A stretch of 64,000 nt of DNA, from NCBI RefSeq assembly GCF_003702705.1, contig NZ_QZMN01000006.1, forward strand, positions 124,001 through 188,000, written 5' to 3'. The stretch comes from Ornithinimicrobium cerasi. GTDB lineage: Bacteria; Actinomycetota; Actinomycetes; Actinomycetales; Dermatophilaceae. The notes under the pieces were generated by a model. It was not told where the DNA came from, ran no database searches, and saw only the letters and a list, made by a program, of their open reading frames with translations. The translations under genes were made by a program, and so were the position numbers. Of this stretch, positions 36,001 through 59,742 are shown piece after piece (the first letter of the stretch is position 1; each line of letters begins with the position of its first letter).

Positions 36001-37038
36001 ATGACTGTGCGCATCGATCCTGACGGCGTCCTCGCCATGTCGGGGGCGACGTTGGCGGTGGGCTCGACGATCGGCACGATCGGCAGCGACATCACCACCC
36101 AGATCGAGAAGGTCGACCAGTGGGTGGCGGGCGCCCCGGCGGCCCGGCGCCGGGCGGGCACGATGGCCGAGACGCTGGCCGTCCTGGCCGGCGCGGCCCG
36201 CGAGCACGCCATCCGCTACGTCGACCACGAGCGCCCCATCGAGGAGCTCCGCTCCCTGGGCTACTGGCTGCCCGACTTCGGCAGCCTCGCCTACCGCGGC
36301 GACGAGACCGTCCTGCAGAACATGGAGCGCATCGCCCGGAGCGACGAGTTCGGCGCGATCCCGCTCGGCATGTCGCAGATGCTCCTCGAGCGCTACCGCA
36401 ACTTCCGCGTCCACGTCCCCCGCGTCGACGTCGCCGCCGGCCGCTCCGTCCTCACCGAGCTAGACAGCCTGCTCGCCACCGTGGACGACGTGCACAACGG
36501 GATGCCGATCGTGCGCCGCGCCAGCGGGCTCTACGTCCCCGCCCTCAGCGACGCCGACCCCCGGATGCCGCGCATCCACTCGATGATCGACGAGGCGACC
36601 TACCGGCCGGGCCACAACTTCACCACCGACCCGACGCTGGGACGCCCGCCGACCTGGGCACGGACCGGTGGCCGCGCGCTCGGCGTGGCCGGCGTCGGCC
36701 TGACGCTGTGGGACGTCGGCGCCACCCAGTGGGAGCACGACCAGCGCTACCACCCGGAGTACAGCACCGGCGAGCGCGTCGCCTCCACCACCTACTCGGT
36801 GGCGACCGAGGGCGGCGGCGCTGTCGCGGGTGGCCTCGTGGGCGCCCACTACGGCGCGATCGCCGGGAGCTTCATCCCGATCCCGGTCGTCGGCACGGTC
36901 GGAGGTGCCCTCGTCGGCGGCGCGATCGGCGCCTTCGTCGGCTCCAAGGCCGGCAAGGCCGTCGGGGAGGGCCTGCAGCAGGCCGGCAGCGCCATCGCCG
37001 ACGGGGCCAAGGACGTCTGGAACGGGCTCTTCGGCTGA
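36001..37038 (+). CDS. WXG-like/glycine-zipper protein, candidate T7SS-associated
   Basis: The 345-residue protein starts the seven-gene operon; GGGGAGGGA lies upstream. The first 100 residues are helical with a W-x-G-like QWVAGAP, as in WXG100-type proteins. The last 90 residues are a glycine-zipper (GGGAVAGGLVGAHYGAIAGS, GGALVGGAIGAFVGSKAGKA) that could insert into or cross a membrane. This N-terminal helical hairpin plus C-terminal payload is the layout of type VII secretion substrates. I do not recognise a named family; pore-forming or membrane-anchoring are both possible. Its stop overlaps the next start (TGATG). Confidence 0.5.
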   Translation: MTVRIDPDGVLAMSGATLAVGSTIGTIGSDITTQIEKVDQWVAGAPAARRRAGTMAETLAVLAGAAREHAIRYVDHERPIEELRSLGYWLPDFGSLAYRGDETVLQNMERIARSDEFGAIPLGMSQMLLERYRNFRVHVPRVDVAAGRSVLTELDSLLATVDDVHNGMPIVRRASGLYVPALSDADPRMPRIHSMIDEATYRPGHNFTTDPTLGRPPTWARTGGRALGVAGVGLTLWDVGATQWEHDQRYHPEYSTGERVASTTYSVATEGGGAVAGGLVGAHYGAIAGSFIPIPVVGTVGGALVGGAIGAFVGSKAGKAVGEGLQQAGSAIADGAKDVWNGLFG

Positions 37039-37382
37039 TGGACGCTCCCGCCTACCTCTTCTCCTGGCCCCTCCTCCTCGTCAGCCTGGCCCTGGTCGCG
37101 CTCGGACTGGTCACCTGGACCGGCGCCAACCGCGCCCTCGTCCTGCGCGCCTGGCCGTCCCCGACGATGCACCTCGCCCCGCTCTACCTCGGCGTCGCCG
37201 GCCTGCTCGCCACGCTCAGCCCCCTCGCCCCCGCCTGGCTGGCCACCCTCATGCTCCTGCTCGCGCTCGCTGCCTTCGCCGTCGGCGTCGTCGCCGTCGT
37301 GTGGCTCCCCGCACTGCTCAAGCCGCGCTGGCTGCGCGACGCCCCCGCCTGGAAGGACCGGTATGACGTCCGCTCCCGTTGA
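37038..37382 (+). CDS. small integral membrane protein
   Basis: ATG 37038 shares a base with the upstream stop. The 114-residue product is almost wholly hydrophobic with three or four helices (FSWPLLLVSLALVALGLVTW, MHLAPLYLGVAGLLATLSPL, LMLLLALAAFAVGVVAVVWL) and a short basic tail. It overlaps the following gene by 20 nt. Position inside a WXG-type operon suggests an immunity or anchoring partner to the glycine-zipper protein, which is inference only. Confidence 0.55.
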   Translation: MDAPAYLFSWPLLLVSLALVALGLVTWTGANRALVLRAWPSPTMHLAPLYLGVAGLLATLSPLAPAWLATLMLLLALAAFAVGVVAVVWLPALLKPRWLRDAPAWKDRYDVRSR

Positions 37383-38691
37383 CCTGACCGTCCACCTCGA
37401 TCCTCCGCCCGGGTGGGTGCAGGTGCCCCAGGAGCCGGACGCCGACGGCACCACCCTGCTCGTCCTCGCGCCCGGGGAGTGGTCGCAGGACTGGGGCGTG
37501 CGGCCCAACCTGGTCGTCGGACTCGGTGCACCGACCTCCGCGAGCATCCGGGCCGTGGCCACCCGCACCGCCGCCACCCTCCTCGCGGTCGACGACGGCC
37601 ACCGGATCGTCGCGTGGGACCTGTGGGAGGACGACGGCGGGCGCCGCATCGTCTCCACCTACCCCGCGGGCACGGCCCTCGTCTGCGCGACGAGCTGGGT
37701 CCGCCTCGAGGGCGGGCGGCCGCTGTCGGTGACCGCGACCGTCGACGCCGACCGCTACCTGCGCGTGATGCCGCTGCTCACCGAGGCGGTCCGCAGCCTG
37801 CGGGTCCAGGGCGTCGTGGGTGGCGATCGCGTCGGCGGGACCGGGGACCTCGGACGCACCGCACCTGAGGCCGACGCGCCTGACGGGCAGCAGGACGAGA
37901 CCGCCGAGCCCCGGACCGACGACTACTGGGCAGCCCACGGGGAGACCCTGGAGGACCTGGGCCGGCTGCAGCTGGCCCAGCCCTGGGAGCCGGACGGCCT
38001 GACCCTCTCGCGCGCGGCCTACGCCGCCCTGGCCGAGGCCGGGCGCGGGCTGCTCGGCGGGACCAGGGTGAGGAAGGCCGACGCCGCCGCCCTCGACGAG
38101 CTCCGCCGTGCCGGGCTGGTCGACGACGCCGGCCGCCTCACCGAGGAGGGCACGACCACGCACACCGCGCTGACCCAGGCCGACCGCCGCGTCCGCGTCG
38201 AGTCGGTCGCCGGCGGCGTCCCGGGGACCTTCGAGGCGGCCCGCCACGGCGACACCGCGCTCGTCTGGGCGACCGACCCCCCGGCCCGGCACGCGGGCCG
38301 GGACACCCTGGGCCGCGACGTCCTCGCCTCCGCCACCTGCGGGACGCTGCAGTGGATCCCGCTCATGCAGCTGCCAGCCCAGCTGGCGGCCTGGCTGCAG
38401 GTCGGCCCGGCCTGGCCGGTGGCGACCGCCCCCGCGCGGGTGCCGCACGACCTCGTGGCTGCCCGCGCCGACGACCCGGCCACGGCGCCCCCGCCCGACG
38501 CCGACGACCACCTGCGCTCCGTGTGGGCGGAGCCGTGGTTCACCTGGACGCTGACCACCGACACCGGGCACGCCCTCGCCGGCGTCCACGCCGGCCGCCA
38601 CGGCCACCTGCGGCTGGGCGAGGACGACCTGCTCCAGGCCTACCCCTCGGAGCCGCTCTTCGGTGCCCTCGTGGGGGTGAGCCTGCTGTGA
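37363..38691 (+). CDS. unknown 442-residue operon protein
   Basis: The protein has two parts. Residues 1-150 are beta-rich (GWVQVPQEPDADGTTLLVLA, PNLVVGLG) and resemble LpqN-type substrate-binding domains found in actinobacterial envelope proteins, though no lipobox is present. Residues 190-442 look like an EspG-type chaperone fold only in general character (repeated strands, LSRAAYAALAEAGRGLLGG); I would not call it. Overlaps on both sides (20 nt and 4 nt) show it is co-translated with the operon. A secretion-chaperone role is a guess that fits context. Confidence 0.4.
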   Translation: MTSAPVDLTVHLDPPPGWVQVPQEPDADGTTLLVLAPGEWSQDWGVRPNLVVGLGAPTSASIRAVATRTAATLLAVDDGHRIVAWDLWEDDGGRRIVSTYPAGTALVCATSWVRLEGGRPLSVTATVDADRYLRVMPLLTEAVRSLRVQGVVGGDRVGGTGDLGRTAPEADAPDGQQDETAEPRTDDYWAAHGETLEDLGRLQLAQPWEPDGLTLSRAAYAALAEAGRGLLGGTRVRKADAAALDELRRAGLVDDAGRLTEEGTTTHTALTQADRRVRVESVAGGVPGTFEAARHGDTALVWATDPPARHAGRDTLGRDVLASATCGTLQWIPLMQLPAQLAAWLQVGPAWPVATAPARVPHDLVAARADDPATAPPPDADDHLRSVWAEPWFTWTLTTDTGHALAGVHAGRHGHLRLGEDDLLQAYPSEPLFGALVGVSLL

Positions 38692-39002
38692 CCACGCCCG
38701 AGGAGAAGCGAGCCCGCGCCCGACTGCTGCGCGAGGTCGCGACCACCATCAGCACCAAGGCCTGGCAGCTCGACGACGACCTCGACACCCTGCTGCGCCG
38801 CTACCCCCACCGCACCGACGGCGTCTGGTGGGGCCCGGCCGCGACCGAGTTCTACGACGCTGCCAAGGACGTGCGGACCGACGTGCGGGCCCTGCGCGCA
38901 GACGTGCTCGGCTACGCCGGCGACTGCCGCGCCCGGGCCTCCACCCTCGAGGACCTCGCCGACGCGCAGGAGGCCGAGCTGCGCGAGCGCGAGGCAGGCT
39001 GA
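38688..39002 (+). CDS. WXG100-like small helical protein
   Basis: GTG 38688 overlaps the upstream stop by 4 nt and gives 104 residues of two long helices with a Trp-Trp-Gly turn (GVWWGPAATEFYDAAKDV) in the middle, which is the WXG100 pattern. Helix lengths and polar/hydrophobic spacing match ESAT-6-like proteins. Such proteins are substrates or partners of type VII secretion. It is a classical size for the family. Confidence 0.65.
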   Translation: MTTPEEKRARARLLREVATTISTKAWQLDDDLDTLLRRYPHRTDGVWWGPAATEFYDAAKDVRTDVRALRADVLGYAGDCRARASTLEDLADAQEAELREREAG

Positions 39003-39009
39003 GGCGGGT

Positions 39010-39273
39010 ATGCCGCACGTTGACATCGCCGCGACGCGCGCCGCCGCCCGGGGGCTGGCGGGGACGGCCGCCGCGCTGCCGGGGGAGGCGGCGGGGGCCG
39101 GGGTGTCCGGGGCAGCGGCCGAGCTCGACGGCTCGGTCACCCAGCACGTGCTGCACGACCTCGACGGCCTGGTCTCGCTGCGGCTGCTCGACCTCGGCGC
39201 CGAGCTGGAGGCGATGGCGGCCGGTATGACCGAGCTCGCCGACAACACGGCCCGCGCGACCGGGGAGCGCTGA
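39010..39273 (+). CDS. small helical protein, WXG100/PE-like
   Basis: This 87-residue Ala/Gly/Leu-rich protein (HVDIAATRAAARGLAGTAAA, then LHDLDGLVSLRLLDLGAELE) forms two helices without Trp. In operons like this one such a protein is usually the partner of a larger WXG-domain protein. Seven bases separate it from the upstream stop, and its stop overlaps the hydrolase start (TGATG). Confidence 0.5.
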   Translation: MPHVDIAATRAAARGLAGTAAALPGEAAGAGVSGAAAELDGSVTQHVLHDLDGLVSLRLLDLGAELEAMAAGMTELADNTARATGER

Positions 39274-41387
39274 TGTCGGCGCCCGTCGTCACCGCCTGGA
39301 TGCGCCAGGACGGCAGCGACGTGCGCCGGCTGGGCGAGGAGCTGGCGTCGTTGGCCACCACCCTGGACCGCAGCGAGCGGGAGCTGGCCACGACGCTGGG
39401 CGCGGCCGCCACCGCCCTCGGCTGGGAGGGCACGATGACCGGGCGCGCGGACGCTGCGAGCGTGCCGACCGGCTCGCTCACCGGCCGGTTCGCCGACGCC
39501 TGCCGGGCGGCGGGCGCGGCCCTGCAGACCCTGGCCGCCACGATGAGCTGGCGCGGCCCGGTGGTGGTGCAGCTGCTGGCGGAGCAGGAGGCGCTGCTCG
39601 CCGACCCGCCGCGGATGACGGTCCGCGACGACCTGGGCGGGGAGGTCCGGGTCGTCGACCACGCCGCTCGCACCAGGCTCCTCGACGACCTCCACTCCCG
39701 GCTGCGGGAGCACATCGACGCCCTCGCCCAGAAGGACCGCGCCTGCCGCGACGCGCTCGCCCACGTGGTCGAGGACCTGGGGCGCCTGGTGCCCCCCGGC
39801 ACCAGCCCCGGCTTCCTGCGCTCGCTTGCCCCGTCCGGGGCCTACGGCCTCTTCCAGGACACCGGCGTCGTCGACACCGACGCGGAGGAGGCCCTGGCCC
39901 GGCGGATCCGGCCCGGCACCCCGGCGCAGGAAGTGCGTCGGCTCATCGCCGAGGTCCCCGTGGGGCGGCTGGACGAGTTCCTCGCCCGGCACCCGCACGT
40001 CGCCGCCGTGCTGGCGGAGGACTGGGACCACGCGACCGGGGAGGACCCGCTACTCGACGCCCTGCTCGAGGCGGTGGGGCCGCCCGGTGAGCACGGGCCG
40101 CAGGTCTCCTCGGTCGGGGCCGTCCGCCGCGCCTGGCTGCAGCTGACGGCCGAGGAACGGGCCAGGCTGCGGCTCCTCTACCCGACCCTCGTGGGCAGCA
40201 CCGACGGCATCGCGATCGAGGACCGGGTGCTGGCCAACCGGGCGCTCGTCCGGCACGCTCTGCTGCGGGAGCTGGCGGTCGAGCACCGGCTGAACAGCGG
40301 CCCCACGACGGCCGAGCTGACCCGTCAGGAGGGCGCGCGCTACGAGGACGCGACCGGGAGCGCCCTCGGCGCCTTCGGCCACTGGCTCGCCCGCCAGTTC
40401 CTCGCCAGCGACGCCGGCCTCTTCGTGCACGACGCGCCGGGCGTCGACCCGGACCGCGAGCTGGCGGAGTCACGGGCCCGCATCGACCTCTACCGCTCGC
40501 TCCTCCTCGACGCTCCGCCCGCCCCCCGCCTCGGCGACACCTCCGGCATCCCCGCGCACCTGCGCCTCCTCCTCGTCTTCGACCCCCGAGGCGACGGGAG
40601 GTATGCCGAGTGGCACGGGCGCGTGGACGCGCCCAACGTGGGGATCCTCGTCCCCGGGACCTACAGCGAGATGGCCAGCATCCAGGACTACTCGACCGAG
40701 GCCGCACGGATCGCCCGTGACCACGCCGCGACGACCGCCACGGTGTCCTGGCTGGGCACCGATCTGCCCAGCTCGATCGTCAGCGACGCGTCTCGGCGCT
40801 CGTTCTCGGAGTCCGGCGGCACGCACCTCCTGCGCTTCGTCGAGGGCCTCGGCCTCGCGCCGGAGCGGGACGTCTCACTCGTCGGGCACTCCGCCGGCGG
40901 CGCCGTGGTGGGGTATGCCGACGTGCTCGGCGTGGACGTCGACCGGGTGCTGCACGTCGCCTCCGCCGGGACCGGTCTCGGGTTGAGCGCCGGCCTGGAC
41001 TACCGGTCCACGACGTGGGACGGGGACGCCCGGGAGGTGGTGCGCTACACCCAGACCGCCCCGGGCGACCCGATCGCGGTGTCGCAGGACTCGGGTTGGC
41101 TCACCGACGGCACCCCCCTGGGGCACGGGTGGGGGCACGAGGACACGTTCGCCGACTGGGTGGTGCTGGACACCGGCCGGACGGAGGACGGCCAGCAGAT
41201 CGCCGGGGGCACGCAGGCCCACACCCAGGTCTTCAGCCCGGGCTCGACCGCCTGGGACAACGTCGTCGGCGTGATCACCGGTGGCCAGGTGACGCCGTAC
41301 GACCCGGAGTGGCACTGGTGGCACGGCCGGCGCAGCCCGTACCACGACTCCGCCTATCCTGGGACGCCCACCGTGGAGGTGCCATGA
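39273..41387 (+). CDS. WXG-like N-terminal domain fused to DUF1023-type alpha/beta hydrolase
   Basis: The 704-residue protein starts with about 120 residues of WXG100-like helices (ELASLATTLDRSERELATTL, LGWEGTMTGR as the W-x-G turn). The last 250 residues are an alpha/beta hydrolase: NVGILVPGTYSEMASIQDY supplies the oxyanion region, VSLVGHSAGGAVVGYADVLG the nucleophile Ser, and AHTQVFSPGSTAWDN the catalytic His. DUF1023 hydrolases of this shape are common in Actinobacteria beside ESX-type genes. A secreted lipase- or esterase-like effector or cell-envelope enzyme is plausible. It overlaps the next gene by 4 nt. Confidence 0.72.
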   Translation: MSAPVVTAWMRQDGSDVRRLGEELASLATTLDRSERELATTLGAAATALGWEGTMTGRADAASVPTGSLTGRFADACRAAGAALQTLAATMSWRGPVVVQLLAEQEALLADPPRMTVRDDLGGEVRVVDHAARTRLLDDLHSRLREHIDALAQKDRACRDALAHVVEDLGRLVPPGTSPGFLRSLAPSGAYGLFQDTGVVDTDAEEALARRIRPGTPAQEVRRLIAEVPVGRLDEFLARHPHVAAVLAEDWDHATGEDPLLDALLEAVGPPGEHGPQVSSVGAVRRAWLQLTAEERARLRLLYPTLVGSTDGIAIEDRVLANRALVRHALLRELAVEHRLNSGPTTAELTRQEGARYEDATGSALGAFGHWLARQFLASDAGLFVHDAPGVDPDRELAESRARIDLYRSLLLDAPPAPRLGDTSGIPAHLRLLLVFDPRGDGRYAEWHGRVDAPNVGILVPGTYSEMASIQDYSTEAARIARDHAATTATVSWLGTDLPSSIVSDASRRSFSESGGTHLLRFVEGLGLAPERDVSLVGHSAGGAVVGYADVLGVDVDRVLHVASAGTGLGLSAGLDYRSTTWDGDAREVVRYTQTAPGDPIAVSQDSGWLTDGTPLGHGWGHEDTFADWVVLDTGRTEDGQQIAGGTQAHTQVFSPGSTAWDNVVGVITGGQVTPYDPEWHWWHGRRSPYHDSAYPGTPTVEVP

Positions 41388-41935
41388 CCATCGCCCCGTT
41401 CCGTGCGGTCGTGCTCGCGTGCACCCTCGTCCTCGCAGGGTGCAGCCAGCAGACCACGACGCCGGCAGACCCCGCCGCCACCACGTCGTCCACCGACCCC
41501 GCCGCCACCACCACCCAGGAGGGCGCACCCGCCATGCCGACCTACACCTCCCAGGACGAGGCGTTGTCCGACGCGCGGACACGCGCGGTCGAGCTGCGCG
41601 ACGAGCTGGCCGCTGCGCTCACCCCCACCGACCCGGTGGAGGCGGAGCGCAGCGCCACCGACGGTCGGGCCTCCTGCACCCTGGGCGGCCCCGGCCCACG
41701 CCGGTGGGACGCGGGGGCGGGGTTCCACGCCGAGGAGCCGCAGGAGCAGGTCGCCCGGGAGGTGACCAGGCTGGAGGCCGACGGGTGGCAGCGGGTCGGC
41801 GCCGCCGCGGAGACCTCGGTGACGCTGGGCCGCGACGGCTGGTCGGTCACCCTGGGCTGGGTCGAGGACGCACCCGGTGTCACCGTCTCCGTCGGGTCAC
41901 CCTGCTACGACGAGGACGGCACCCCGGCCGGCTGA
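41384..41935 (+). CDS. small lipoprotein, last gene of WXG-type operon
   Basis: ATG 41384 overlaps the hydrolase stop (ATGA). The 183-residue product has a clear lipobox (LACTLVLAGCSQQ), a Thr-rich linker and a compact domain containing two Cys (SCTLGGPGPRRWDAG, GSPCYDEDG). Placement behind a secreted hydrolase suggests an immunity or anchor protein; that is inference from operon order. Confidence 0.6.
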   Translation: MTIAPFRAVVLACTLVLAGCSQQTTTPADPAATTSSTDPAATTTQEGAPAMPTYTSQDEALSDARTRAVELRDELAAALTPTDPVEAERSATDGRASCTLGGPGPRRWDAGAGFHAEEPQEQVAREVTRLEADGWQRVGAAAETSVTLGRDGWSVTLGWVEDAPGVTVSVGSPCYDEDGTPAG

Positions 41936-50138: not shown

Positions 50139-53100
50139 TCACGGGTAGACGATGCCCTCCATCGACTCCTGGACGGCCAGCGACAGCGCGCCGTAGCCAC
50201 CCACGATGGTGATCTCCTGGATGCGCAGCTGGGTGATCTGGTTGAGCACCGGGCCGGGGACACCCTGCGGACGGCTGAGGAGCACCGGGCTGTTGTACTT
50301 CGCCGCGACCGGGCCGGCGGCCAGGGCGTCGGGGAAGTTGACGCCGGTGGCCAGCAGCGCGTGGTCGACCGGGGCGTCGTAGAACTCCGCCGCGATCGCC
50401 GCCGAGGTGCCGTAGCGGTCGTTGCCCGCGACCCGGACGACGTCGCCGGCGTAGGGCCGGACCGCGTCCATCGTGGCCCTCGAGATCGCCAGCTCGCCAC
50501 CGACCACGACCACGAGGTCGGGGTTCAGCCGGTCGAGCTGCTGCGCGACCGCACCGGGCAGGCCACCCGGCCGGGTGAGCAGCACCGGGGCGCCCTCCAT
50601 GCCGGCGACGGCCGAGGCCGACACCGCGTCCGGGTAGTCCAGGCCGTTGGCGAGGAAGACCACGTTCAGGCCCGCGGGGTACTCGGCGGCGACGGCTGCC
50701 GAGGTCTGGTAGCGGTCAGCACCCTGGATGCGGTCCACGGTGCCGGCATACCCCTCGAGCATCGTCTCGATGGTCGAGCTCACCGCGGTGGTGCCGCCCA
50801 GGATGACGATGCGCTGGGGCTTGAGCATCTGCAGCGCCATCCGGGTGGGTGCCGGGACACCGTTGGGGTGGGTGAGCAGGATGGGGGCGCCGTCGGCACC
50901 GGCCATCGCGCCACCGGACAGCGCGTCGGGGAAGGCCGCCCCGGAGGCGATGTAGACGGTCTCCACACCCTCCGGGAAGTTCTCCACGGCCAGCTCGGAC
51001 GCCGTGGCGTACCGGTCCTGACCGATCGCGCGGTTGATCGTCGGACGGTCGACCAGACCGGAGCCCGACCAGGCCACGTCGAAGGACGGGCTGGTCCAGG
51101 TCTCGACGCCCGGGGTGCGGTCGTCGTTCCAGGCGCTGGCCTTGGTCACGTCGATCTCGAGGATGTACGAGCCGCTGGGCACCCGCACGCGGGCACCGTT
51201 CCACTGCTCGACCATGCCGTCCCAGGTGTAGACGCTGATCCCGTTGCGGCTGGCGTTGCGGGCCAGGTAGTCCTCGGCCCGGACGACCCCGAGGGACTCG
51301 CCCTTGGTGCCGTCGGCGGTGGCCGCGAAGACCTCCCAGACCATGGACCGGGCCTGCGTCTCGAAGTGGATCGCCACGCTGGGGACGTCGCCGGCGTCCA
51401 TGGTGTAGACGTTGCCCTCCCCGACGTAGGTCCACGAGCCGGCCGGGTCGACGCAGTCGTTGCCGAGGAACCGGCCACAGGTGGTCAGCTCCAGCAGCGC
51501 GGGCAGCTCGCGGGTGACGTTGCCGTCGACGTCGACCTGGTCCGCGAGGACCTCGACGTCCTGCAGGTCGTAGGAGGCGCCGCCGTAGGCGAGGGCGTAC
51601 TCCGACTCGTCCGCACCGGTGAACCACACGTAGCCGCCGAAGAACGGCTCACGCCCGTCGTCCGGGTCGGGACCCGGGGAGGTGATGGACACCGTGACGG
51701 TGGTGCTGCCGCCGGCCGGGACCTCGACCGAGGTGGGCGCCTCGACGACGGCGTCCGCGTACCAGTAGTACCAGTCGTTCGGCGTGCCGTAGGTGCCCAG
51801 CGCCGACTCGGTGGAGACGGCGTAGGTCATCGCCTCGTCGGAGGAGTTGGTCAGCGTGACCTCGTGCGTCGAGGTGGTGCCCGAGCGCTGCTGACCGAGC
51901 TGGAGCATGCCCGGCTCGATGGTCAGGTCGGCCAGGATGGACCGGTCGATCTGGATCATGCCGGCGCCCTGACGGTGCACGACCTCCATGCCGGCCGCCG
52001 GCGAGACCGACAGCGGCAGCTGGACGGCCGAGTTCTGCAGGCGGACGCGGACGTCCTGGACCGACAGGCTCGGGTCGGCCTCGAGCATGAGCGCCGCGGC
52101 GCCCGCGACGTGCGGGGCAGCCATCGAGGTACCGGACAGGGTGGCGTAGGGACGGATCTCCAGCGGGTAGGTCGAGTAGATCGACCCGCCCGGTGCGGAG
52201 ACGTCCGGCTTGACCCGGAGGTCGGCCGTCGCCCCGAAGGAGCTGAAGTCGCTCATCAGGCCACCGCTGGGGTTGGGCGCGTTGGTCAGCTCGTCCGTCC
52301 AGGTGATGGTCGTGCTGCCGTCCGCGACCGCGTCGGCTGCCAGCCGGGTGCCGTCCTGGATCAGGACCTCGACCACCGGGATGGTGATCGGCGTGGCACC
52401 GGCGACTGTCGCGCCGATGAAGCCCGCGGTGTTGTTGTAGAGGAGCACCCCGGCCGCACCGGCGGCCTGCGCGTTGACGGCCTTGTCGTGGAACGCGCAG
52501 GTGCCGCGCTGCACGAGGACCCAGTTGCCGGCCACCAGGGCCTGCTGCTCCGCGGTGTAGGGGGTGCAGCCCTGGGCCGCGGTGGTCCCGGCCAGGTCGA
52601 GCGCGACGACGGTCGCGGTGCCCGAGACCGGCGGGGCCGGCGAGCCGGCGACGGTGTTGTAGGGCACCGGGGTCCCGGCCTCGTCGAGGAAGGAGGAGGA
52701 CAGGACCGACACGTTGTCGACCGAGCCGACGCCGATGGTGTCCTCACCGGCACCGGGGGCACCGGCGGACTGGAGACCGCTGGCGCCGGAGTTGCCGATG
52801 GAGGCGACCACCACGACACCCTCGCGGGCGAGCGCGTCGGTCGCGCGGGAGGTCGGGTACTCCTTCCAGGCGGTGAAGGCCGAGCCGATGGAGAGGTTGA
52901 CGACGTCCATGCCGTCGGCCAGCGAGCGCTCCATCGCGTGCAGCATGATGTCGGACTCGGTCGAGCCCTCGCAGCCGAAGACGCGGTAGCCGCCGAACGT
53001 GACGCCCGGGGCGACCCCGGTGACCTCGCCGCTGGCACCGACGATGCCGGCCACGTGCGTGCCGTGCCCGTTGCAGTCGTCCGGGTTGGCGTCGGGCAGG

Positions 53101-53795
53101 GGCTTGGGCTGGTATGCCGGGTCGCTCGGGTCGGAGTTGTAGGAGTCGCCGACGAAGTCGTAGCCCCTGGTGACGCGGGCCGACGGGAAGGCCGTCGTGC
53201 CCGGGCTGCCGGTGCCGCCGAGGTCCGGGTGGTCCAGGTCGATGCCGGTGTCGATGATGCCGACCCGCACGCCCGCACCGGTGTAGCCGAGCTCGCTCTG
53301 GACGATGTCGGCACCGGTCATCTGGATCGCGGTGTAGAGCTCGGGGTTGGCGTCCTCGGGGCGCTCCGGCACCTCGACGAGCCCGATCGGGAAGATCGCC
53401 TCGACGGTGTCGGAGGCGGCGAGCGCGGCCAGGTCGGCCTTGTCGGCCGCGACCGACACGCCGTTCCACAGGGTGCCGAACTCACGCCGCACCTCCACGT
53501 CGACGCCCGCCTCGGCGGCGTCGGCGAGGAACGCGTTGCGCTCGGCGCGGACGGCGGTCAGCGACCCGCCGTCGGCCACGGCCGGAGCGCTCAGCTGGAC
53601 GAAGTACGCCCCCGGAGCCGTCTCCACGTCCGTCAGGACGCCGTTCTGGATCTTGCTCTCCGGGGCTGGTGAGCCCTCGATGCGACCGTCGTCCGCGGTG
53701 GCGACGACGGGGACCAGCAGGGCCCCTGTCATCGAGACCGCGGCGACGCCCGCGAGAGCGCGCCGGGACATGGTCCCCTGTCGTACAGATTTCAC
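50139..53795 (-). CDS. secreted subtilisin-like protease with PA domain and C-terminal CWB2 repeats
   Basis: GTG 53795 is chosen over the ATG at 53840 because GGGAG sits 8 nt upstream and it gives a basic n-region; ATG 53772 is an alternative. The 1218-residue product has a signal peptide, an I9-like propeptide (to about 140), the catalytic triad D182 (GIIDTGIDLDHPDL), H244 (DCNGHGTHVAGI) and Ser in LSGTSMAAPHVAGAAA near residue 600, and a PA insert before the Ser (VLVQRGTCAFHDKAVNAQAA). The last 300 residues are three CWB2 repeats (INRAIGQDRYATASELAVEN and similar) that should anchor it in the wall. Probable role in maturing other surface proteins. Shares its anchor type with the deacetylase at 44319. 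Confidence 0.93.
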   Translation of the reverse strand: MKSVRQGTMSRRALAGVAAVSMTGALLVPVVATADDGRIEGSPAPESKIQNGVLTDVETAPGAYFVQLSAPAVADGGSLTAVRAERNAFLADAAEAGVDVEVRREFGTLWNGVSVAADKADLAALAASDTVEAIFPIGLVEVPERPEDANPELYTAIQMTGADIVQSELGYTGAGVRVGIIDTGIDLDHPDLGGTGSPGTTAFPSARVTRGYDFVGDSYNSDPSDPAYQPKPLPDANPDDCNGHGTHVAGIVGASGEVTGVAPGVTFGGYRVFGCEGSTESDIMLHAMERSLADGMDVVNLSIGSAFTAWKEYPTSRATDALAREGVVVVASIGNSGASGLQSAGAPGAGEDTIGVGSVDNVSVLSSSFLDEAGTPVPYNTVAGSPAPPVSGTATVVALDLAGTTAAQGCTPYTAEQQALVAGNWVLVQRGTCAFHDKAVNAQAAGAAGVLLYNNTAGFIGATVAGATPITIPVVEVLIQDGTRLAADAVADGSTTITWTDELTNAPNPSGGLMSDFSSFGATADLRVKPDVSAPGGSIYSTYPLEIRPYATLSGTSMAAPHVAGAAALMLEADPSLSVQDVRVRLQNSAVQLPLSVSPAAGMEVVHRQGAGMIQIDRSILADLTIEPGMLQLGQQRSGTTSTHEVTLTNSSDEAMTYAVSTESALGTYGTPNDWYYWYADAVVEAPTSVEVPAGGSTTVTVSITSPGPDPDDGREPFFGGYVWFTGADESEYALAYGGASYDLQDVEVLADQVDVDGNVTRELPALLELTTCGRFLGNDCVDPAGSWTYVGEGNVYTMDAGDVPSVAIHFETQARSMVWEVFAATADGTKGESLGVVRAEDYLARNASRNGISVYTWDGMVEQWNGARVRVPSGSYILEIDVTKASAWNDDRTPGVETWTSPSFDVAWSGSGLVDRPTINRAIGQDRYATASELAVENFPEGVETVYIASGAAFPDALSGGAMAGADGAPILLTHPNGVPAPTRMALQMLKPQRIVILGGTTAVSSTIETMLEGYAGTVDRIQGADRYQTSAAVAAEYPAGLNVVFLANGLDYPDAVSASAVAGMEGAPVLLTRPGGLPGAVAQQLDRLNPDLVVVVGGELAISRATMDAVRPYAGDVVRVAGNDRYGTSAAIAAEFYDAPVDHALLATGVNFPDALAAGPVAAKYNSPVLLSRPQGVPGPVLNQITQLRIQEITIVGGYGALSLAVQESMEGIVYP

Positions 53796-53874: not shown

Positions 53875-55329
53875 TCAGATCACAGGACGATAACGATCGA
53901 GAATTCTCGCGACACGCAGCAGGTTGACGTCGCGTCCGGGTGCCGCCACGAGCTGCACCCCCACCGGGACCTCTCCGCCCCCGGGCGCGACGGCATACCC
54001 GGCGGGCAGGGAGACCGAGGGGCACCCGGTCGCGGAGACGACCGAGCAGGAGCGCATCCACTCCACGTAGGAGCCCATCGAGCGGCCCGCGACCTCGGTG
54101 GGCCAGCGCTGCCAGACCGGGAACGGGAGCACCTGGGAGGTCGGCAGGAGGAGCAGGTCGTGGTCGGCGAACCACCCGCGGACCGCAGCGTCGAGCCGGC
54201 CCCGGGCAAGCGTGGCGGCGACGACGTCGGCACCGGTGAGGGCCAGCCCGCGGTCGACGTTCCACACGACGTCGGCCTTGACGGTGCCGTCGTCCCGGTG
54301 ACCCTGGATGGTGGGCCCGAGCGCGAGAGCCATGTCCAGGGCGCGCTGCACGTCGAAGACGCGGTCGGCCCCGGACAGGTCCGGGCAGGACTCCTCCACC
54401 TGCGCGCCCAGCGCGACGAGCCGGCCGGCGGCACGGTCGACCGCTGCGGCGATCCCGGGCTCGAGGGGCAGGTCGAGGCCGAGGTCGGTGCTCGTCCCCA
54501 CCCGCAGCCCCCGCAGGTCATCGGCGACCCGCTCGGCGAGGAGGGAGGAGAAGGCGGCCGCGTCGGCGGGGCAGGGCAGCGGCACGCGCGGGTCGGGGCC
54601 CGCCGTGGCGGCCAGCATGAGGATCACGTCGTCGACGGTGCGGGCCATCGGGCCGGCGACGGCCAGCCAGGCGCGGGGGTTCTGGTTCGGGCCGGACGGG
54701 ACCACGCCGGCGCTCGGGCGCAGGCCGACGACCCCGCAGAAGGAGGCGGGGTTGCGCAGGCTGCCGCCCATGTCGGAGCCGTCCGCCAGGCTCTGGATCC
54801 CGGCCGCCAGGGCCGCCGCCCCGCCGCCGGTCGAGCCGCCGGCGCTGAGGCGGGGGTCGTGCGGGTTGCGGGTGGCGCCGAAGACCTCGTTGACGGTGTG
54901 GCTGCCGGCGGCGAACTCGGGCACGTTGTTCTTGCCGGTGCTCACCACGCCCGCCGCGCGCAGCCGCCCCACGACGATCTCGTCGTGCGTGGGGACGTGG
55001 TCGCGCAGCAGCGGGCTGCCCATCGTGGTGCGGATGCCCCGGGTGGCGTGGGTGTCCTTGTGGGTCATCGGTATGCCGTGCAGCAGCGGGAGCGGTTCCC
55101 CCGCCCGGGAGGCGCGCACCGCCCGCTCGTCCGCCGCCGCGGCACCCTCCCGGGCCCGGTCCTCGGCGAGGGTGACGACGGCGTTGATCTCGGGGTCGAC
55201 CTCGCCGATCCGGTCGAGGTGCTGCTCGAGGGCCTCGCGGGCGGAGAGCTCCCGGGTGCGCAGGAGGCGGGCGAGCTCGACGGCCGAGGGGGTCCCCGGG
55301 GCGGCGAGAAGAGGTGAGCGGGACGGCAT
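53875..55329 (-). CDS. amidase (amidase signature family)
   Basis: ATG 55329 gives 484 residues. The Ser-cisSer-Lys triad is clear: Lys in IPMTHKDTHATR, cis-Ser in RLSAGGSTGGGAAALAAG and Ser in LADGSDMGGSLRNPASF. C-terminal VGVQLVAAPGRDVNLLRVAR is typical of the family. These enzymes hydrolyse carbon-nitrogen bonds in amides; the sequence does not distinguish a general amidase from a GatA-like one, though no GatB/GatC genes are near. No signal peptide is seen, so it is cytoplasmic. Confidence 0.9.
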   Translation of the reverse strand: MPSRSPLLAAPGTPSAVELARLLRTRELSAREALEQHLDRIGEVDPEINAVVTLAEDRAREGAAAADERAVRASRAGEPLPLLHGIPMTHKDTHATRGIRTTMGSPLLRDHVPTHDEIVVGRLRAAGVVSTGKNNVPEFAAGSHTVNEVFGATRNPHDPRLSAGGSTGGGAAALAAGIQSLADGSDMGGSLRNPASFCGVVGLRPSAGVVPSGPNQNPRAWLAVAGPMARTVDDVILMLAATAGPDPRVPLPCPADAAAFSSLLAERVADDLRGLRVGTSTDLGLDLPLEPGIAAAVDRAAGRLVALGAQVEESCPDLSGADRVFDVQRALDMALALGPTIQGHRDDGTVKADVVWNVDRGLALTGADVVAATLARGRLDAAVRGWFADHDLLLLPTSQVLPFPVWQRWPTEVAGRSMGSYVEWMRSCSVVSATGCPSVSLPAGYAVAPGGGEVPVGVQLVAAPGRDVNLLRVARILDRYRPVI

Positions 55330-55366: not shown

Positions 55367-55969
55367 ATGACTGACACGGACCGGGTGCTGGAGACGTTGG
55401 AGCGGGAGCTGGCGTTCGTGGGGGAGCGCCGGCCGGACCCCGGGGTGGAGGACCGGGCGTGCCGCCGGGCGGGCGAGGTGCTGCACGACCTGTGGCGCAG
55501 GGGTGAGCTGGTGGGGGCGACGCCGCAGGAGGCCTACCGGGTGCGCTGCGACGGGCGGACCGGGACCGAGGCCGACCGGGCCGCCGGCCGCCTCGTGATG
55601 GAGGTGGCGCTGGCCGTCGGGGAGCCGGGCGTCCTGGAGGAGCGGACGCTCGTGCTCGAGACGACCGCCAGCCGCCCGCCCACCGTCCTTCCGCGGCAGC
55701 GCGGCCTCGCGGAGGCCACGTCGCTGGCGCGGCCCCGGCTGGCCTTCGTGCGCCGCGCGAACCTCGCGCCCCTCGTCTCGCGACGGGCCGAGGAGACCGA
55801 GCGCTCGCTGGGGGAGCTCTTCGAGCAGGCGGCCGCGGCCAACGCGGTCCTCCTCCTCGAGGAGGCCCACGTGCTGCTCACCGGCCCGACGCAGCACCGG
55901 CTGCGGATGGATCGGGTGCTGGAGCGCCTCTCCGCGCGGACGCACGTGCCCTACGTGCTGACGTCCTGA
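55367..55969 (+). CDS. tail-sheath-like domain joined to partial AAA+ domain
   Basis: ATG 55367 starts a 200-residue protein with two unlike halves. Residues 36-100 (VLHDLWRRGELVGATPQEAY, then RVRCDGRTGTEADRAAGRLV) match the C-terminal domain of phage/contractile-injection tail sheaths, including the GATPQEAY-RVRCD and AGRLVMEV pattern. Residues 127-200 (FVRRANLAPLVSRRAEETER, SLGELFEQAAAANAVLLLEE) match the stretch of classical AAA+ ATPases from just after Walker A through Walker B, with LLLEEA where LFIDEA is usual, ending at the sensor-1 strand (HVPYVLTS). There is no Walker A and no arginine finger. It may be a non-catalytic scaffold, or a fusion left by deletion within a contractile injection locus. 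No other injection gene is in the window. Confidence 0.6.
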   Translation: MTDTDRVLETLERELAFVGERRPDPGVEDRACRRAGEVLHDLWRRGELVGATPQEAYRVRCDGRTGTEADRAAGRLVMEVALAVGEPGVLEERTLVLETTASRPPTVLPRQRGLAEATSLARPRLAFVRRANLAPLVSRRAEETERSLGELFEQAAAANAVLLLEEAHVLLTGPTQHRLRMDRVLERLSARTHVPYVLTS

Positions 55970-56026: not shown

Positions 56027-57760
56027 GTGCTCACCCGACTGCTGCGCCGGCACCTCCGGCCCTACCTCGGCCTGGTCGTCGTCGTGCTGGTGCTCCAGCT
56101 GGTCGCCGCGGTCGCCAGCCTCTACCTGCCCAGCCTCAACGCCGACATCATCGACGACGGGGTGGCCAAGGGTGACACGGCGCTGATCTGGCGGCTCGGG
56201 GCGGTCATGCTCGCCGTCAGCGCGCTGCAGGCCGTGGCCCAGATCGTCGCCACCTGGGCCGCCGCGCGCACCGCGATGGGCCTGGGCCGCGACGTCCGCG
56301 CCGCCGTCTTCGACCGGGTGCTGACCTTCTCCGCCCGCGAGATGGGGCAGTTCGGGGCGCCGACGCTCATCACCCGCAGCACCAACGACGTGCAGCAGGT
56401 GCAGCAGCTGACCTTCATGGCGCTGATCATGCTCGTCGCCGCCCCCATCACCGGCGTCGGCGGCGTCATCATGGCGGTCCGCGAGGACGTCGGGCTGTGG
56501 CCGCTCATCGCGGTGGCCGTGGTCGCGCTGCTGCTCGGGATGGGGCTGGTCATCCGGCGGATGGTGCCGCTGTTCCGGGCCCAGCAGACCCAGCTCGACG
56601 CGGTCAACCGGGTCCTGCGCGAGCAGATCACCGGTGTCCGCGTCGTCCGCGCCTTCACCCGCGAGCGCGAGGAGACGCAGCGCTTCCGCGAGACCAACAC
56701 CGAGCTGACCGGCATCGGGCTCAAGGTCGGCGACCTCATGGCCCTGCTCTTCCCGATGGTCATGCTCGTGATGAACCTCTCCAGCGTGGGCGTCATCTGG
56801 TTCGGCGCGCAGCGGGTCGAGGCGGGGCAGATGGAGGTCGGGTCGCTCACCGCCTACATCAGCTACCTCATCCAGATCCTGATGGCGATCATGATGGCCA
56901 CGATGGTGGCGACGATGATCCCGCGGGCCTCCGTCTCGGCCGAGCGGATCCAGGCGGTGCTCGGCACGGAGTCCAGCGTCGGCCCGCCCGCCACCCCGAC
57001 GGACGCCGGGGTGGCGCGGGGGCGGGTGGAGCTGCGCGGCGCGGCGTTCACCTACCCGGGGGCGGAGACGCCGGTGCTGCGCGACGTCAGCTTCACGGCG
57101 GTGCCGGGCGCGACGACGGCGATCGTCGGCGGCACCGGGTCCGGCAAGACGACCCTGCTGCGCCTCCTGCCGCGGCTGGCGGACGTGACCGACGGGGCGG
57201 TGCTCGTCGACGGGACCGACGTGCGCGACCTCGCGCCGCAGGACCTGTGGTCGCGGGTCGGCATCGTGCCGCAGCGCCCCTACCTCTTCTCCGGCACCGT
57301 CGCCACCAACCTGCGCCTGGGCCGCCCCGACGCCGGCGACGACGAGCTGTGGGAGGCGCTGCGGGTCGCCCAGGCCGACGACTTCGTCCGCGGCTTCCCC
57401 GAGGGCCTGGACCACCCGGTCGCCCAGGGCGGCACCAACGTCTCCGGCGGTCAGCGGCAGCGGCTGTGCATCGCCCGCGCCCTGGTCGCCCGGCCCCGGA
57501 TCTACCTCTTCGACGACTCCTTCTCGGCGCTCGACCTCGCCACCGACGCCCGGTTGCGGTCCGCGCTGCGGCCGGTGACGCGAGAGGCGACGGTGATCGT
57601 CGTCGCCCAGCGCATCTCGACGATCGTCGACGCCGACCAGATCGTCGTTCTCGACGAGGGCCGGGTGGTCGGCACCGGCACCCACGCGGAGCTGCTGCGC
57701 AGCTGTCCGGAGTATGCCGAGATCGCCAGCTCCCAGGAGTACGTGGAGGTGACGGCGTGA
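56027..57760 (+). CDS. ABC exporter half-transporter, degenerate-site subunit
   Basis: The 577-residue product has six helices and an ATPase domain with Walker A (GGTGSGKTTLLRLLP), signature VSGGQRQRLCIARAL and Walker B IYLFDDSFSALD, where Asp replaces the catalytic Glu. That substitution marks the degenerate half-site of heterodimeric exporters such as TM287/288. GTG 56027 is the start. It is coupled by a GTGA overlap to the gene at 57757, its expected partner. Substrate is not shown; drug, lipid or peptide export are possible. Confidence 0.9.
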   Translation: MLTRLLRRHLRPYLGLVVVVLVLQLVAAVASLYLPSLNADIIDDGVAKGDTALIWRLGAVMLAVSALQAVAQIVATWAAARTAMGLGRDVRAAVFDRVLTFSAREMGQFGAPTLITRSTNDVQQVQQLTFMALIMLVAAPITGVGGVIMAVREDVGLWPLIAVAVVALLLGMGLVIRRMVPLFRAQQTQLDAVNRVLREQITGVRVVRAFTREREETQRFRETNTELTGIGLKVGDLMALLFPMVMLVMNLSSVGVIWFGAQRVEAGQMEVGSLTAYISYLIQILMAIMMATMVATMIPRASVSAERIQAVLGTESSVGPPATPTDAGVARGRVELRGAAFTYPGAETPVLRDVSFTAVPGATTAIVGGTGSGKTTLLRLLPRLADVTDGAVLVDGTDVRDLAPQDLWSRVGIVPQRPYLFSGTVATNLRLGRPDAGDDELWEALRVAQADDFVRGFPEGLDHPVAQGGTNVSGGQRQRLCIARALVARPRIYLFDDSFSALDLATDARLRSALRPVTREATVIVVAQRISTIVDADQIVVLDEGRVVGTGTHAELLRSCPEYAEIASSQEYVEVTA

Positions 57761-59742
57761 GCACCCGGGAGGAGGAGCCGAGGGCCGCCGAGCGACCGGC
57801 CGTGCCGCGCGGGCCCCGGGGCGGCGGGCCGCACGGCTTCGGTCAGCCCGTGGAGAAGCCCTCCGACTTCCGGGGGTCGGCGACGCGACTGCTGAGGCGA
57901 CTGGCGCCATACCGGATGATCGTCGCCACCTCGATGGCGCTCACGGTCGCGGCCGTGATCCTGTCCACCCTGGGCCCGCGCGTGCTCGGGCGGGCCACCG
58001 ACCACATCTTCGCGGGCTTCCTCGGTGCGCGCTTCCCGGCGGGCGCGAGCGTCGAGGAGGTCGTCGCCGGGCTGCGGGCGCAGGGCCAGGACACGTTCGC
58101 GGACATGGTGGCGGGCACCCCCTACCTCGTGCCCGGACAGGGCATCGACCTCGGCGCGGTGGGGATGACCATCCTCCAGGTGATCGGCCTGTATGCCGCC
58201 TCCGCCCTCCTCTTCTGGGTGTCCGTGCGGCTGGTGAACCGGGTGTCGATGTGGACCGTGCGCGACCTGCGCGCCGAGGCGGAGGACCAGCTGCACCGGC
58301 TGCCGCTGGCCTACTTCGACGGGCAGCCGCGCGGCGAGACGCTCTCGCGGGTGACCAACGACCTGGACAACCTGCAGCAGACGCTGCAGCAGACGTTCGG
58401 GCAGCTGCTGAACTCCCTCGTCACGGTGGTCGCGATCCTGGCGATGATGCTGTGGATCAGCCCGGTGCTCACGCTCATCGCGCTGGCCACCATCCCGGTC
58501 TCGGTGCTGGTGACGATCCTCATCGCCTCGCGCTCGCAGAAGCTGTTCAAGGCCCAGTGGGCGCACACCGGGACGCTCAACGGGCAGATCGAGGAGGCGT
58601 TCACCGGGCACGAGCTGGTGACGGTCTTCGGCCAGCGGGGGCAGGCGTCGGCGCGGATGCGGGAGATCAACGAGAAGCTCTACGACGTCACCTGGCGGGC
58701 GCAGTTCATGAGCGGCGTGATCATGCCGGCGATGTTCCTCATCGGCAACCTCGGCTACGTCCTCGTGGCGGTCGTCGGCGGGCTGCGGGTGGCGACGGGG
58801 ACGCTGTCCCTGGGCAGCGTGCAGGCGTTCATCCAGTACTCCCGGCAGTTCACCCAGCCGGTGACCCAGGTCGCCTCGATGGCGAACCTGCTGCAGTCGG
58901 GCGTCGCGTCCGCCGAGCGCGCGTTCGTGCTGCTCGACGCCGAGCAGCAGCGGCCCGACCCGGTCGACGCGGAGCCGCTGGGTGCGAGCGGGGCGGGCCG
59001 GATCGAGTTCGAGGACGTCACCTTCTCCTACGGCGCGGAGCCGCTGATCGAGGGTCTCTCGCTGGTGGCCGAGCCGGGGCAGACCGTGGCGATCGTCGGT
59101 CCGACGGGCGCCGGGAAGACGACGCTGGTCAACCTCATCCTGCGGTTCTACGAGCTGGACGGCGGGCGGATCACGCTCGACGGCCGGGACGTCACGACCA
59201 TGACGCGCGAGGACCTGCGCTCCCGGGTCGGGATGGTGCTGCAGGACACCTGGCTGTTCGAGGGGTCGATCGCGGACAACATCGCCTACGGGCGGCCGGG
59301 CGCGACGGCGGCGGACGTGCGGGCCGCGGCGGAGGCGGCCTACGTCGACCGCTTCGTGCACCACCTGCCCGACGGCTACGACTCGGTCCTCGACGACGAG
59401 GGGTCGACGGTGTCGGCCGGGGAGAAGCAGCTCATCACGATCGCGCGGGCGTTCGTGGCGCAGCCCTCGCTGCTGATCCTCGACGAGGCGACGTCGTCGG
59501 TGGACACCCGGACCGAGCTGCTGGTCCAGGAGGCGATGGCGCGGCTGCGCGCCGACCGGACCTCCTTCGTCATCGCCCACCGGCTCTCGACGATCCGGGA
59601 CGCCGACCTCATCCTGGTGATGGAGGAGGGTCGCATCGTCGAGCAGGGCACGCACGCCGAGCTGGTGGCACGCGACGGGGCCTACCGCCGGCTGCACGAC
59701 GCGCAGTTCAGCGGCGCGGCCGTGCAGGTGGACGCGGACTAG
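57757..59742 (+). CDS. ABC exporter half-transporter, catalytic-site subunit
   Basis: GTG 57757 overlaps the partner stop. The 661-residue protein has a 45-residue basic/Pro-rich N-terminal extension, six helices with a large first extracellular loop (residues 85-130), Walker A (GPTGAGKTTLVNLIL), Walker B LLILDEATSSVD with the catalytic Glu, and H-loop IAHRLSTI. Its signature is VSAGEKQLITIARAF, which departs from LSGGQ, as expected in a heterodimer where the partner supplies the good signature. Together they form one functional and one degenerate ATP site. Confidence 0.9.
   Translation: MSTREEEPRAAERPAVPRGPRGGGPHGFGQPVEKPSDFRGSATRLLRRLAPYRMIVATSMALTVAAVILSTLGPRVLGRATDHIFAGFLGARFPAGASVEEVVAGLRAQGQDTFADMVAGTPYLVPGQGIDLGAVGMTILQVIGLYAASALLFWVSVRLVNRVSMWTVRDLRAEAEDQLHRLPLAYFDGQPRGETLSRVTNDLDNLQQTLQQTFGQLLNSLVTVVAILAMMLWISPVLTLIALATIPVSVLVTILIASRSQKLFKAQWAHTGTLNGQIEEAFTGHELVTVFGQRGQASARMREINEKLYDVTWRAQFMSGVIMPAMFLIGNLGYVLVAVVGGLRVATGTLSLGSVQAFIQYSRQFTQPVTQVASMANLLQSGVASAERAFVLLDAEQQRPDPVDAEPLGASGAGRIEFEDVTFSYGAEPLIEGLSLVAEPGQTVAIVGPTGAGKTTLVNLILRFYELDGGRITLDGRDVTTMTREDLRSRVGMVLQDTWLFEGSIADNIAYGRPGATAADVRAAAEAAYVDRFVHHLPDGYDSVLDDEGSTVSAGEKQLITIARAFVAQPSLLILDEATSSVDTRTELLVQEAMARLRADRTSFVIAHRLSTIRDADLILVMEEGRIVEQGTHAELVARDGAYRRLHDAQFSGAAVQVDAD

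What the first reader, a model, noticed from the sequence alone, without database searches (positions are those of the whole stretch)
55367..55969. Orphan fusion of a tail-sheath C-terminal domain with a Walker-A-less AAA+ fragment
Seen: one clean 200-residue frame with a start, no internal stop and normal codon bias, containing two blocks that match unlike proteins of contractile injection systems (sheath C-terminal domain, then the AAA+ core from after Walker A to sensor 1, with LLLEEA at Walker B). Known: in actinobacterial contractile injection loci the sheath and an AAA+ protein are neighbours. Inferred: either a deletion scar still under selection, or a small regulatory/scaffold protein of a new architecture. 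It is the most unusual gene in the window.
Basis: partly seen in the sequence, partly recalled or inferred. Interest (0 to 1): 0.75.

Follow-up and report, generated by a model that had tools for sequence, protein, structure and literature searches.

The report
Shortened injection-sheath/dead-ATPase fusion protein
A small bacterial gene is a cut-down, still-conserved descendant of parts of a phage-tail-like injection machine, a piece of the outer sheath joined to half of an ATPase that can no longer bind ATP, in a genome where no such machine was found.

Summary
Window 55367-55969 (+) is a 200-aa gene. Its first ~98 residues are a tail-sheath C-terminal domain. The rest is a piece of an AAA+ domain like D2 of contractile-injection-system (CIS) ATPases, without Walker A and ending near sensor 1. 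Both matches exceed 2000 shuffles.

The fusion is not private to this isolate. Sixteen of 32 genomes of the genus (Ornithinimicrobium sensu lato) and Tessaracoccus sp. MC1679 carry it. In 13 of the 16 it is a full-length 447-489 aa orphan protein. The window gene is the syntenic ortholog that lost its first ~260 residues; genome G031 shares the loss. Window against G031 gives dN/dS 0.51 (bootstrap 0.36-0.72), the sheath half more constrained than the AAA half; comparisons with full-length relatives are looser. No CIS tube or gp25 gene was found in this genome, which also holds one full-length paralog.

Unexpectedly, a Walker-A-less piece of the same type also ends two orphan tail-tube proteins, an alpha/beta hydrolase and an unassigned protein. 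It may be a reused module. Best reading: a domesticated, ATP-dead, non-polymerising CIS-derived binding protein with unknown partner. Slow decay is the main rival.

The parts
55367..55969 (+). whole gene, 200 aa (P0001): N-truncated sheath-AAA fusion protein
   Evidence: orthologs; selection
55367..55660 (+). residues 1-98: tail-sheath C-terminal domain, predicted helices then two long strands (75-83, 90-98)
   Evidence: model (pLDDT 88.6); aligns with the segment TDHVLxSLxxG onward of full-length orthologs
55661..55744 (+). residues 99-126: linker plus helix 110-124 at the place of AAA+ alpha1; no GxxxxGK[ST]
55745..55966 (+). residues 127-200: AAA+ half-domain (beta2-alpha2-beta3-alpha3-beta4), nearest to the second AAA domain of CIS-type ATPases
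55850..55867 (+). LLLEEA (residues 162-167) at the Walker B position; the CIS-type AAA+ consensus has DEAD here
50139..53771 (-). S8-type serine protease gene (identified by reading): syntenic marker, next to the fusion gene in G001, G018, G023 and G031
53875..55329 (-). amidase gene (identified by reading) just upstream; no gene called at this place in G031, G001, G018
56027..59742 (+). two ABC exporter genes (identified by reading) downstream: syntenic marker

Best explanation
SHOWN: the gene belongs to an orphan family in which a minimal tail-sheath protein is fused to a piece of a CIS-type AAA+ domain lacking Walker A. In this species and in G031 the first ~260 residues (sheath N-terminal and subtilisin-like core) are gone, most simply by one loss in their common ancestor. 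The rest is intact in both, with substitutions biased against amino-acid change. INFERRED: the product is a small soluble two-domain protein. It cannot form a sheath (no sheath core) and cannot bind or hydrolyse ATP (no P-loop, Walker B aspartate replaced, chain ends before the Arg-finger and lid region). It acts as a passive binding or adaptor protein: the sheath C-terminal domain with its strand arm, and the inert AAA+ half-domain, are protein-interaction surfaces. It works without an injection machine and, as G031 suggests, without any intact sheath paralog. The binding partner is unknown.
For: Full-length orthologs in the same gene neighbourhood in G001, G018 and G023. DNA similarity between window and G031 begins, by eye, at about the start codon; no N-terminal remnant was found in the window or in 20 kb of G031. 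Tree: orphan family 100/100, window+G031 100/99 (these two rows fill only 27% of the columns). Window against G031: dN/dS 0.51 [0.36-0.72] over 198 codons; sheath half 0.41 [0.22-0.69], beside 0.42 and 0.44 for the same region in full-length pairs G001-G023 and G001-G018; second against third codon positions p = 0.0002. The only gaps between the two proteins are residue 2 and the last residue. Model pLDDT 88.6. Walker A pattern in 0 of 15 family members and 0 of 23 dead copies. No tube or gp25 gene found in G000 or G031; no PF04984 match in G031. The same type of half-domain on other orphan proteins.
Against: No binding partner, expression or phenotype is known. Window against the full-length relatives G001, G018 and G023 gives looser ratios: 0.73, 0.64 and 0.46 in the sheath half and 1.54, 1.00 and 0.87 in the AAA core. 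Window against G031 the AAA core is 0.61 [0.32-1.22]. The stem branch of the truncated pair is long (0.60, against tips of 0.17-0.48 in those three relatives). So the AAA half may be drifting. In the family the AAA piece is shortened in G003, G004, G021, G029 and O. murale, absent in T. lapidicaptus and an Arachnia MAG, and replaced by a cupin-like tail in three genomes, so it is dispensable. The promoter and terminator scan found nothing, as in its shuffles, and is uninformative.
Confidence: 0.48

Rival explanations
1. A decaying remnant: after losing its N-terminal part (more than half of the full-length protein) the gene is on its way out, and its open frame survives partly because GC-rich DNA has few stop codons.
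For: Truncation, long stem branch, AAA core with dN/dS not distinguishable from 1 and looser ratios against full-length relatives, a frame break in the G014 relative, repeated shortening of the AAA piece elsewhere.
Against: Window-G031 dN/dS 0.51 with upper bootstrap bound 0.72; sheath half 0.41; no internal indel beyond residue 2 at 61% protein identity; same start region in two species.
Confidence: 0.3
2. A regulator of the intact sheath-AAA paralog (G000:C32, 482 aa): the truncated protein caps or poisons its assembly.
For: G000 has one PF04984 gene, the paralog; the C-terminal arm strands are kept in the model.
Against: G031 keeps the truncated gene but has no PF04984 match. The PGVYIEE-like N-terminal segment is in 1 of 15 full-length sheath-AAA proteins but in 5 of 5 sheaths from CIS loci, so polymerisation of the fusions is itself doubtful.
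Confidence: 0.1
3. A working accessory part of a contractile injection system, for example a loading factor or scaffold.
For: Both halves resemble CIS proteins.
Against: Tube and gp25 genes occur in 8 of 32 genus genomes but only 3 of the 16 fusion carriers, and not in G000 or G031; no CIS genes were recognised beside the orphan fusion genes in the stretches read.
Confidence: 0.04
4. Chance resemblance of a GC-rich frame.
For: Pfam AAA score below its cut-off for this protein alone.
Against: Shuffle controls, family-profile match E 4.0e-42, orthologs and synteny.
Confidence: 0.01

Closest known systems
Contractile tail sheath proteins (PF04984/PF17482), e.g. 8bky (recalled as a Streptomyces CIS sheath) and Pvc2/Pvc3 (6j0n)
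   Same: The sheath half and the full-length relatives are homologous (A1 profile against 8bky E 7.1e-72; P0001 against Pvc3 E 9.8e-5).
   Different: The window protein keeps only the C-terminal domain; the full-length relatives are orphans, mostly without the N-terminal PGVYIEE-like segment, and carry a C-terminal AAA piece.
CIS AAA+ ATPase (Pvc15-like), second AAA domain (D2)
   Same: The AAA piece matches residues about 420-560 of 607-680 aa AAA+ proteins read in five CIS loci. Pvc15 D2 carries the GTGK and DEAD motifs (PMC11495950, abstract and section 3.2 read).
   Different: No Walker A; matches end near beta4, before Arg fingers, sensor 2 and lid; in the window clade the pore-loop and DEAD residues have also changed.
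Orphan tail-tube + AAA half-domain proteins found here (G048:C12 = L129, G116:C26 = L130)
   Same: Orphan CIS-type part with a Walker-A-less piece of the same type at the C-terminus (Pfam gp19 and AAA both over cut-off).
   Different: The partner is the tube (PF06841), not the sheath; G048 also has CIS-type sheath and AAA+ genes on another contig.

Membership tests
Contractile tail sheath protein | Homologous C-terminal sheath domain | tested here: met
Contractile tail sheath protein | Subtilisin-like core domain (PF04984) | tested here: not met
   absent from P0001 and from the searched flanking DNA; over cut-off in 5 of 6 full-length relatives scanned
Contractile tail sheath protein | Encoded with a tube and baseplate | tested here: not met
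   no PF06841 or PF04965 match in G000 (draft of 87 contigs, 99.99% complete); other baseplate families not searched
Contractile tail sheath protein | Polymerises into a contractile sheath | not testable with these tools
   needs purification and electron microscopy
AAA+ ATPase (CIS Pvc15-like) | Homology to the AAA+ alpha/beta core | tested here: met
AAA+ ATPase (CIS Pvc15-like) | Walker A GxxxxGK[ST] | tested here: not met
   0 of 15 family members, 0 of 23 dead copies
AAA+ ATPase (CIS Pvc15-like) | Walker B DE | tested here: not met
   LLLEEA in P0001; E, Q or R in place of the aspartate in its clade; DE kept in most other sheath fusions
AAA+ ATPase (CIS Pvc15-like) | Arg fingers, sensor 2 and lid | tested here: not met
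   matches end at or before position 131 of the 206-position CIS-type profile in 23 of 23 dead copies
Orphan sheath-AAA fusion family (described here) | Ortholog by tree and synteny | tested here: met
Orphan sheath-AAA fusion family (described here) | Full sheath core plus AAA piece | tested here: not met
   window and G031 copies lack the first ~260 residues; they are truncated members

The most novel reading that the evidence does not exclude
The ATP-dead, Walker-A-less half of the CIS-type AAA+ domain is a portable interaction module that was attached to the C-terminus of orphan CIS parts (sheath, tube) and of unrelated proteins. It would define a class of domesticated CIS-derived proteins that work without any injection machine; the window gene is a small sheath-type member.
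Probability: 0.35. Interest if true: 0.75.

Novelty: new variant of a known kind. Interest (0 to 1): 0.53.

Why it matters
It shows that parts of contractile injection machines can outlive the machine as single genes in Actinobacteria, and that a dead piece of the same type of AAA+ domain is joined to both sheath and tube. That makes a question testable: does the CIS AAA+ D2 domain normally dock on sheath and tube, so that its inert half is kept as a binding module once the machine is gone? It also warns annotators that such 'phage tail sheath' and 'AAA ATPase' genes need not mark a phage, an injection system or an ATPase.

Tried and rejected
Chance match: rejected by shuffles. Private to the isolate: rejected. 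Longer protein from the open frame upstream (553 aa): rejected, because that frame runs antisense through the amidase gene. My simple gene caller first picked a weak antisense frame here; I put this down to its looking only at the first 25 start codons of a frame, and the sense frame scores 85.5 against 10.6. A viral, phage or plasmid source of the fusion: no relative in the viral-contig scan; 0 of 6 phage and 0 of 135 plasmid records with a match hold one place covering 80% of the C-terminal query (all 6 and 10 of 135 records seen as rows). Pvc16 as the partner of the AAA piece in G436: not supported. Trees of the ~80-column AAA pieces: poorly resolved. In the 102-row tree the two tube copies fall apart, with long-branch warnings. 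In the 50-row tree they join (90/87, long-branch warning), dead copies cluster (2 label changes against 14.4 in shuffles), and one origin is not rejected (p-AU 0.2); neither one nor several origins is shown. Left out: the G031, G004, G021, G029, O. murale, G342 and G022:C7 copies, seven odd or long CIS-type rows, identical rows, and every second CIS-type row. The full-length model is of low confidence (pLDDT 66.7) and was not used. The first genome-contig scan with P0001 alone found nothing.

Full report
WHAT IS THERE. The 200-codon frame at 55367-55969 (+) is as described: ATG start, no internal stop, GC at third positions 0.97. Residues 27-88 match tail sheaths (PHROG E 4.6e-6; Pvc3 of 6j0n E 9.8e-5). 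A profile built from 7 sheaths outside this family gives 43.3 bits, while the best of 2000 shuffles gives 8.5. Five of the 7 lie in CIS loci; L124 and L040 are lone full-size sheaths. The second half is weak in Pfam (AAA E 0.068, below cut-off). A profile of 76 distinct CIS-type AAA+ domains gives 26.1 bits against a best shuffle of 6.5. Those domains were chosen by similarity and by having a Walker A; I read the CIS surroundings of only five such proteins. Foldseek places this half on the p97 D1 core (best E 3.9e-4; no sheath chain is among the 50 rows listed). The AlphaFold2 model is confident (pLDDT 88.6, pTM 0.60): a helical and two-stranded sheath C-terminal domain, then a helix at the place of AAA+ alpha1 and beta2-alpha2-beta3-alpha3-beta4.

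IT IS A FAMILY. In the genus, 22 of 32 genomes match P0001 at E <= 0.01. Reading the frames shows sheath plus AAA piece in 16 of 32. Thirteen have a full-length gene of 447-489 aa, including a second gene in this genome (G000:C32, 482 aa). One copy has a frame break (G014), one has a shortened piece (G017, O. murale, 407 aa), and G031, like the window, has a truncated gene. Three other genomes (G002, G005, G024) have an orphan sheath with a cupin-like tail; Pfam was run on one of them (Cupin_2 E 1.3e-7), and the other two were read as the same kind of C-terminal sequence. Outside it, Tessaracoccus sp. MC1679 has the fusion (471 aa), while T. lapidicaptus (360 aa) and an Arachnia MAG (385 aa) have the orphan sheath without it. 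In samples of 396 order and 394 class genomes (4 candidates scored per genome), no listed match at E <= 1e-60 covers the AAA part of the profile (about 375-462) in one open frame, except this genome's own. In Pfam, three less changed members (L021, L041, L043) show Phage_sheath_1 and AAA over cut-off, AAA starting at profile position 22-26 of 131; the window-clade member L024 falls below both cut-offs.

THE WINDOW COPY IS A TRUNCATION. Full-length orthologs sit next to the same S8 protease gene in G001, G018 and G023, and near the ABC exporters in G001 and G018; G023's contig is too short to show them. P0001 aligns from the segment TDHVLxSLxxG onward. G031 has the same 200-aa form, with DNA similarity starting, by eye, at about the start codon; no remnant of the missing part was found by tblastn in the window or in 20 kb of G031. 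The tree puts window and G031 together (100/99) inside a five-member clade (100/99), with all orphan-family rows apart from the 7 other sheaths (100/100) (the two truncated rows fill 27% of the columns).

SELECTION. Window against G031: 198 codons, dN 0.33, dS 0.64, ratio 0.51 [0.36-0.72]; differences at codon positions 55/48/84, p = 0.0002 for second against third; gaps only at residue 2 and the end. The sheath half gives 0.41 [0.22-0.69], beside 0.42 and 0.44 for full-length pairs in the same region; the AAA core gives 0.61 [0.32-1.22]. Against this, window with full-length G001, G018 and G023 gives 0.73, 0.64 and 0.46 (sheath half) and 1.54, 1.00 and 0.87 (AAA core). Seven neighbouring genes compared between window and G031 run from about 0.12 to 0.56 (ratios). 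The stem leading to the truncated pair is long (0.60). I conclude that the gene is still constrained, mainly in its sheath half, after a period of fast change.

NO INJECTION MACHINE FOUND. Tube (PF06841) and gp25 (PF04965) genes occur in the same 8 of 32 genus genomes. Only 3 of the 16 fusion carriers (G004, G018, G021) are among them; G000 and G031 are not. G031 has no PF04984 match, and G000 has only the C32 paralog. An N-terminal PGVYIEE-like segment, which as I recall supplies the strand linking sheath subunits, is present in 5 of 5 sheaths from CIS loci, 1 of 2 lone full-size sheaths, 1 of 15 full-length sheath-AAA proteins and 2 of 3 cupin forms. I infer that most fusions do not build ordinary sheaths.

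THE DEAD AAA PIECE RECURS. A search with the AAA piece (A5, which itself includes three CIS ATPases) gave 48 matches in 187 family genomes. Thirteen are the orphan sheaths. All other 35 were read: 31 have a Walker A upstream and 4 do not. Those 4 are: an alpha/beta hydrolase (G066:C304, 428 aa; Abhydrolase_1 and AAA over cut-off); two orphan tail-tube proteins in different genera (G048:C12, 253 aa; G116:C26, 230 aa; Phage_T4_gp19 E 1.7e-13 and 6.5e-16, AAA over cut-off); and a 99-aa copy that looks decayed (G022:C7). G048 and G066 also have a CIS-type AAA+ gene with Walker A elsewhere. In the order search (56 rows) all but this genome's own row were read: 53 have Walker A and two do not, a 303-aa protein with an unassigned N-terminus (G436) and a 116-aa protein (G342). 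Of the 58 class rows I read 9, mainly short frames. None of 23 dead copies holds a Walker A pattern. Their match to the CIS-type profile (Walker A at 32-39 of 206) starts after position 39 in 20 and at 30, 36 and 38 in three, and ends at or before 131 in all 23. In the reduced tree the dead copies cluster, and one origin is neither shown nor rejected (p-AU 0.2).

HOW IT MAY WORK. Without a P-loop, Arg fingers or lid the product should not be an ATPase, and without the sheath core it should not be a sheath. The simplest remaining role is passive binding. Pvc15, the CIS ATPase of Photorhabdus, helps load effectors; its D2 is reported as the active ATPase domain, and the authors consider roles outside ATPase activity (PMC11495950; abstract and section 3.2 read). 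That the same type of half-domain is attached to orphan sheath and orphan tube suggests, but does not show, that it is a contact surface for CIS parts. Decay is the main rival.

LITERATURE. Six searches listed 35 entries, of which I saw titles and abstract starts; the last two showed 10 of 190 and 10 of 247 papers. None of those entries mentions a sheath-AAA or tube-AAA fusion. PMC9230969, on sheath evolution, has no hit for 'fusion', 'ATPase' or 'C-terminal extension' (passage search). Subscription journals and preprints were not searched.

Noticed in passing
L129:1316-2077 (-) in G048; L130:1448-2140 (-) in G116: Orphan tail-tube (gp19-like) proteins with a Walker-A-less AAA piece at the C-terminus, among genes read as housekeeping.
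   Followed up: partly
L125:4456-5742 (+) in G066: Alpha/beta hydrolase with the Walker-A-less CIS-type AAA piece at its C-terminus.
   Followed up: partly
L169:1384-2292 (+) in G436; L132:1515-1865 (+) in G342: Two more Walker-A-less copies: one behind an unassigned ~200-residue N-terminus next to a MarR-type regulator, one a 116-aa protein.
   Followed up: partly
L035:6111-7571, L036:9285-10739, L037:9585-11048 (G024, G002, G005): Orphan tail-sheath proteins with a cupin-like C-terminal tail instead of the AAA piece.
   Followed up: partly
L124:9489-11066 (G022), L040:8833-10716 (G018), L126:5319-6437 (G445), L127:5283-6431 (G889), L128:8907-10064 (G058): Further lone tail-sheath genes with no CIS genes recognised beside them and no AAA piece.
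   Followed up: no
L043:5153-5707 and L169:2494-2997: DUF6328 genes lie next to fusion-protein genes in Tessaracoccus and in G436, although the fusion partners differ; possibly coincidence.
   Followed up: no
L047:7050-7925 and L043:7425-8315: A gene of unknown family (Pfam: only DUF2515 at E 0.064, tested on L047) lies directly downstream of the orphan sheath in both Tessaracoccus species.
   Followed up: no
window 36001-41935: Run of small WXG-like and ESX-like genes suggesting a type VII secretion-related cluster (read from translations only).
   Followed up: no
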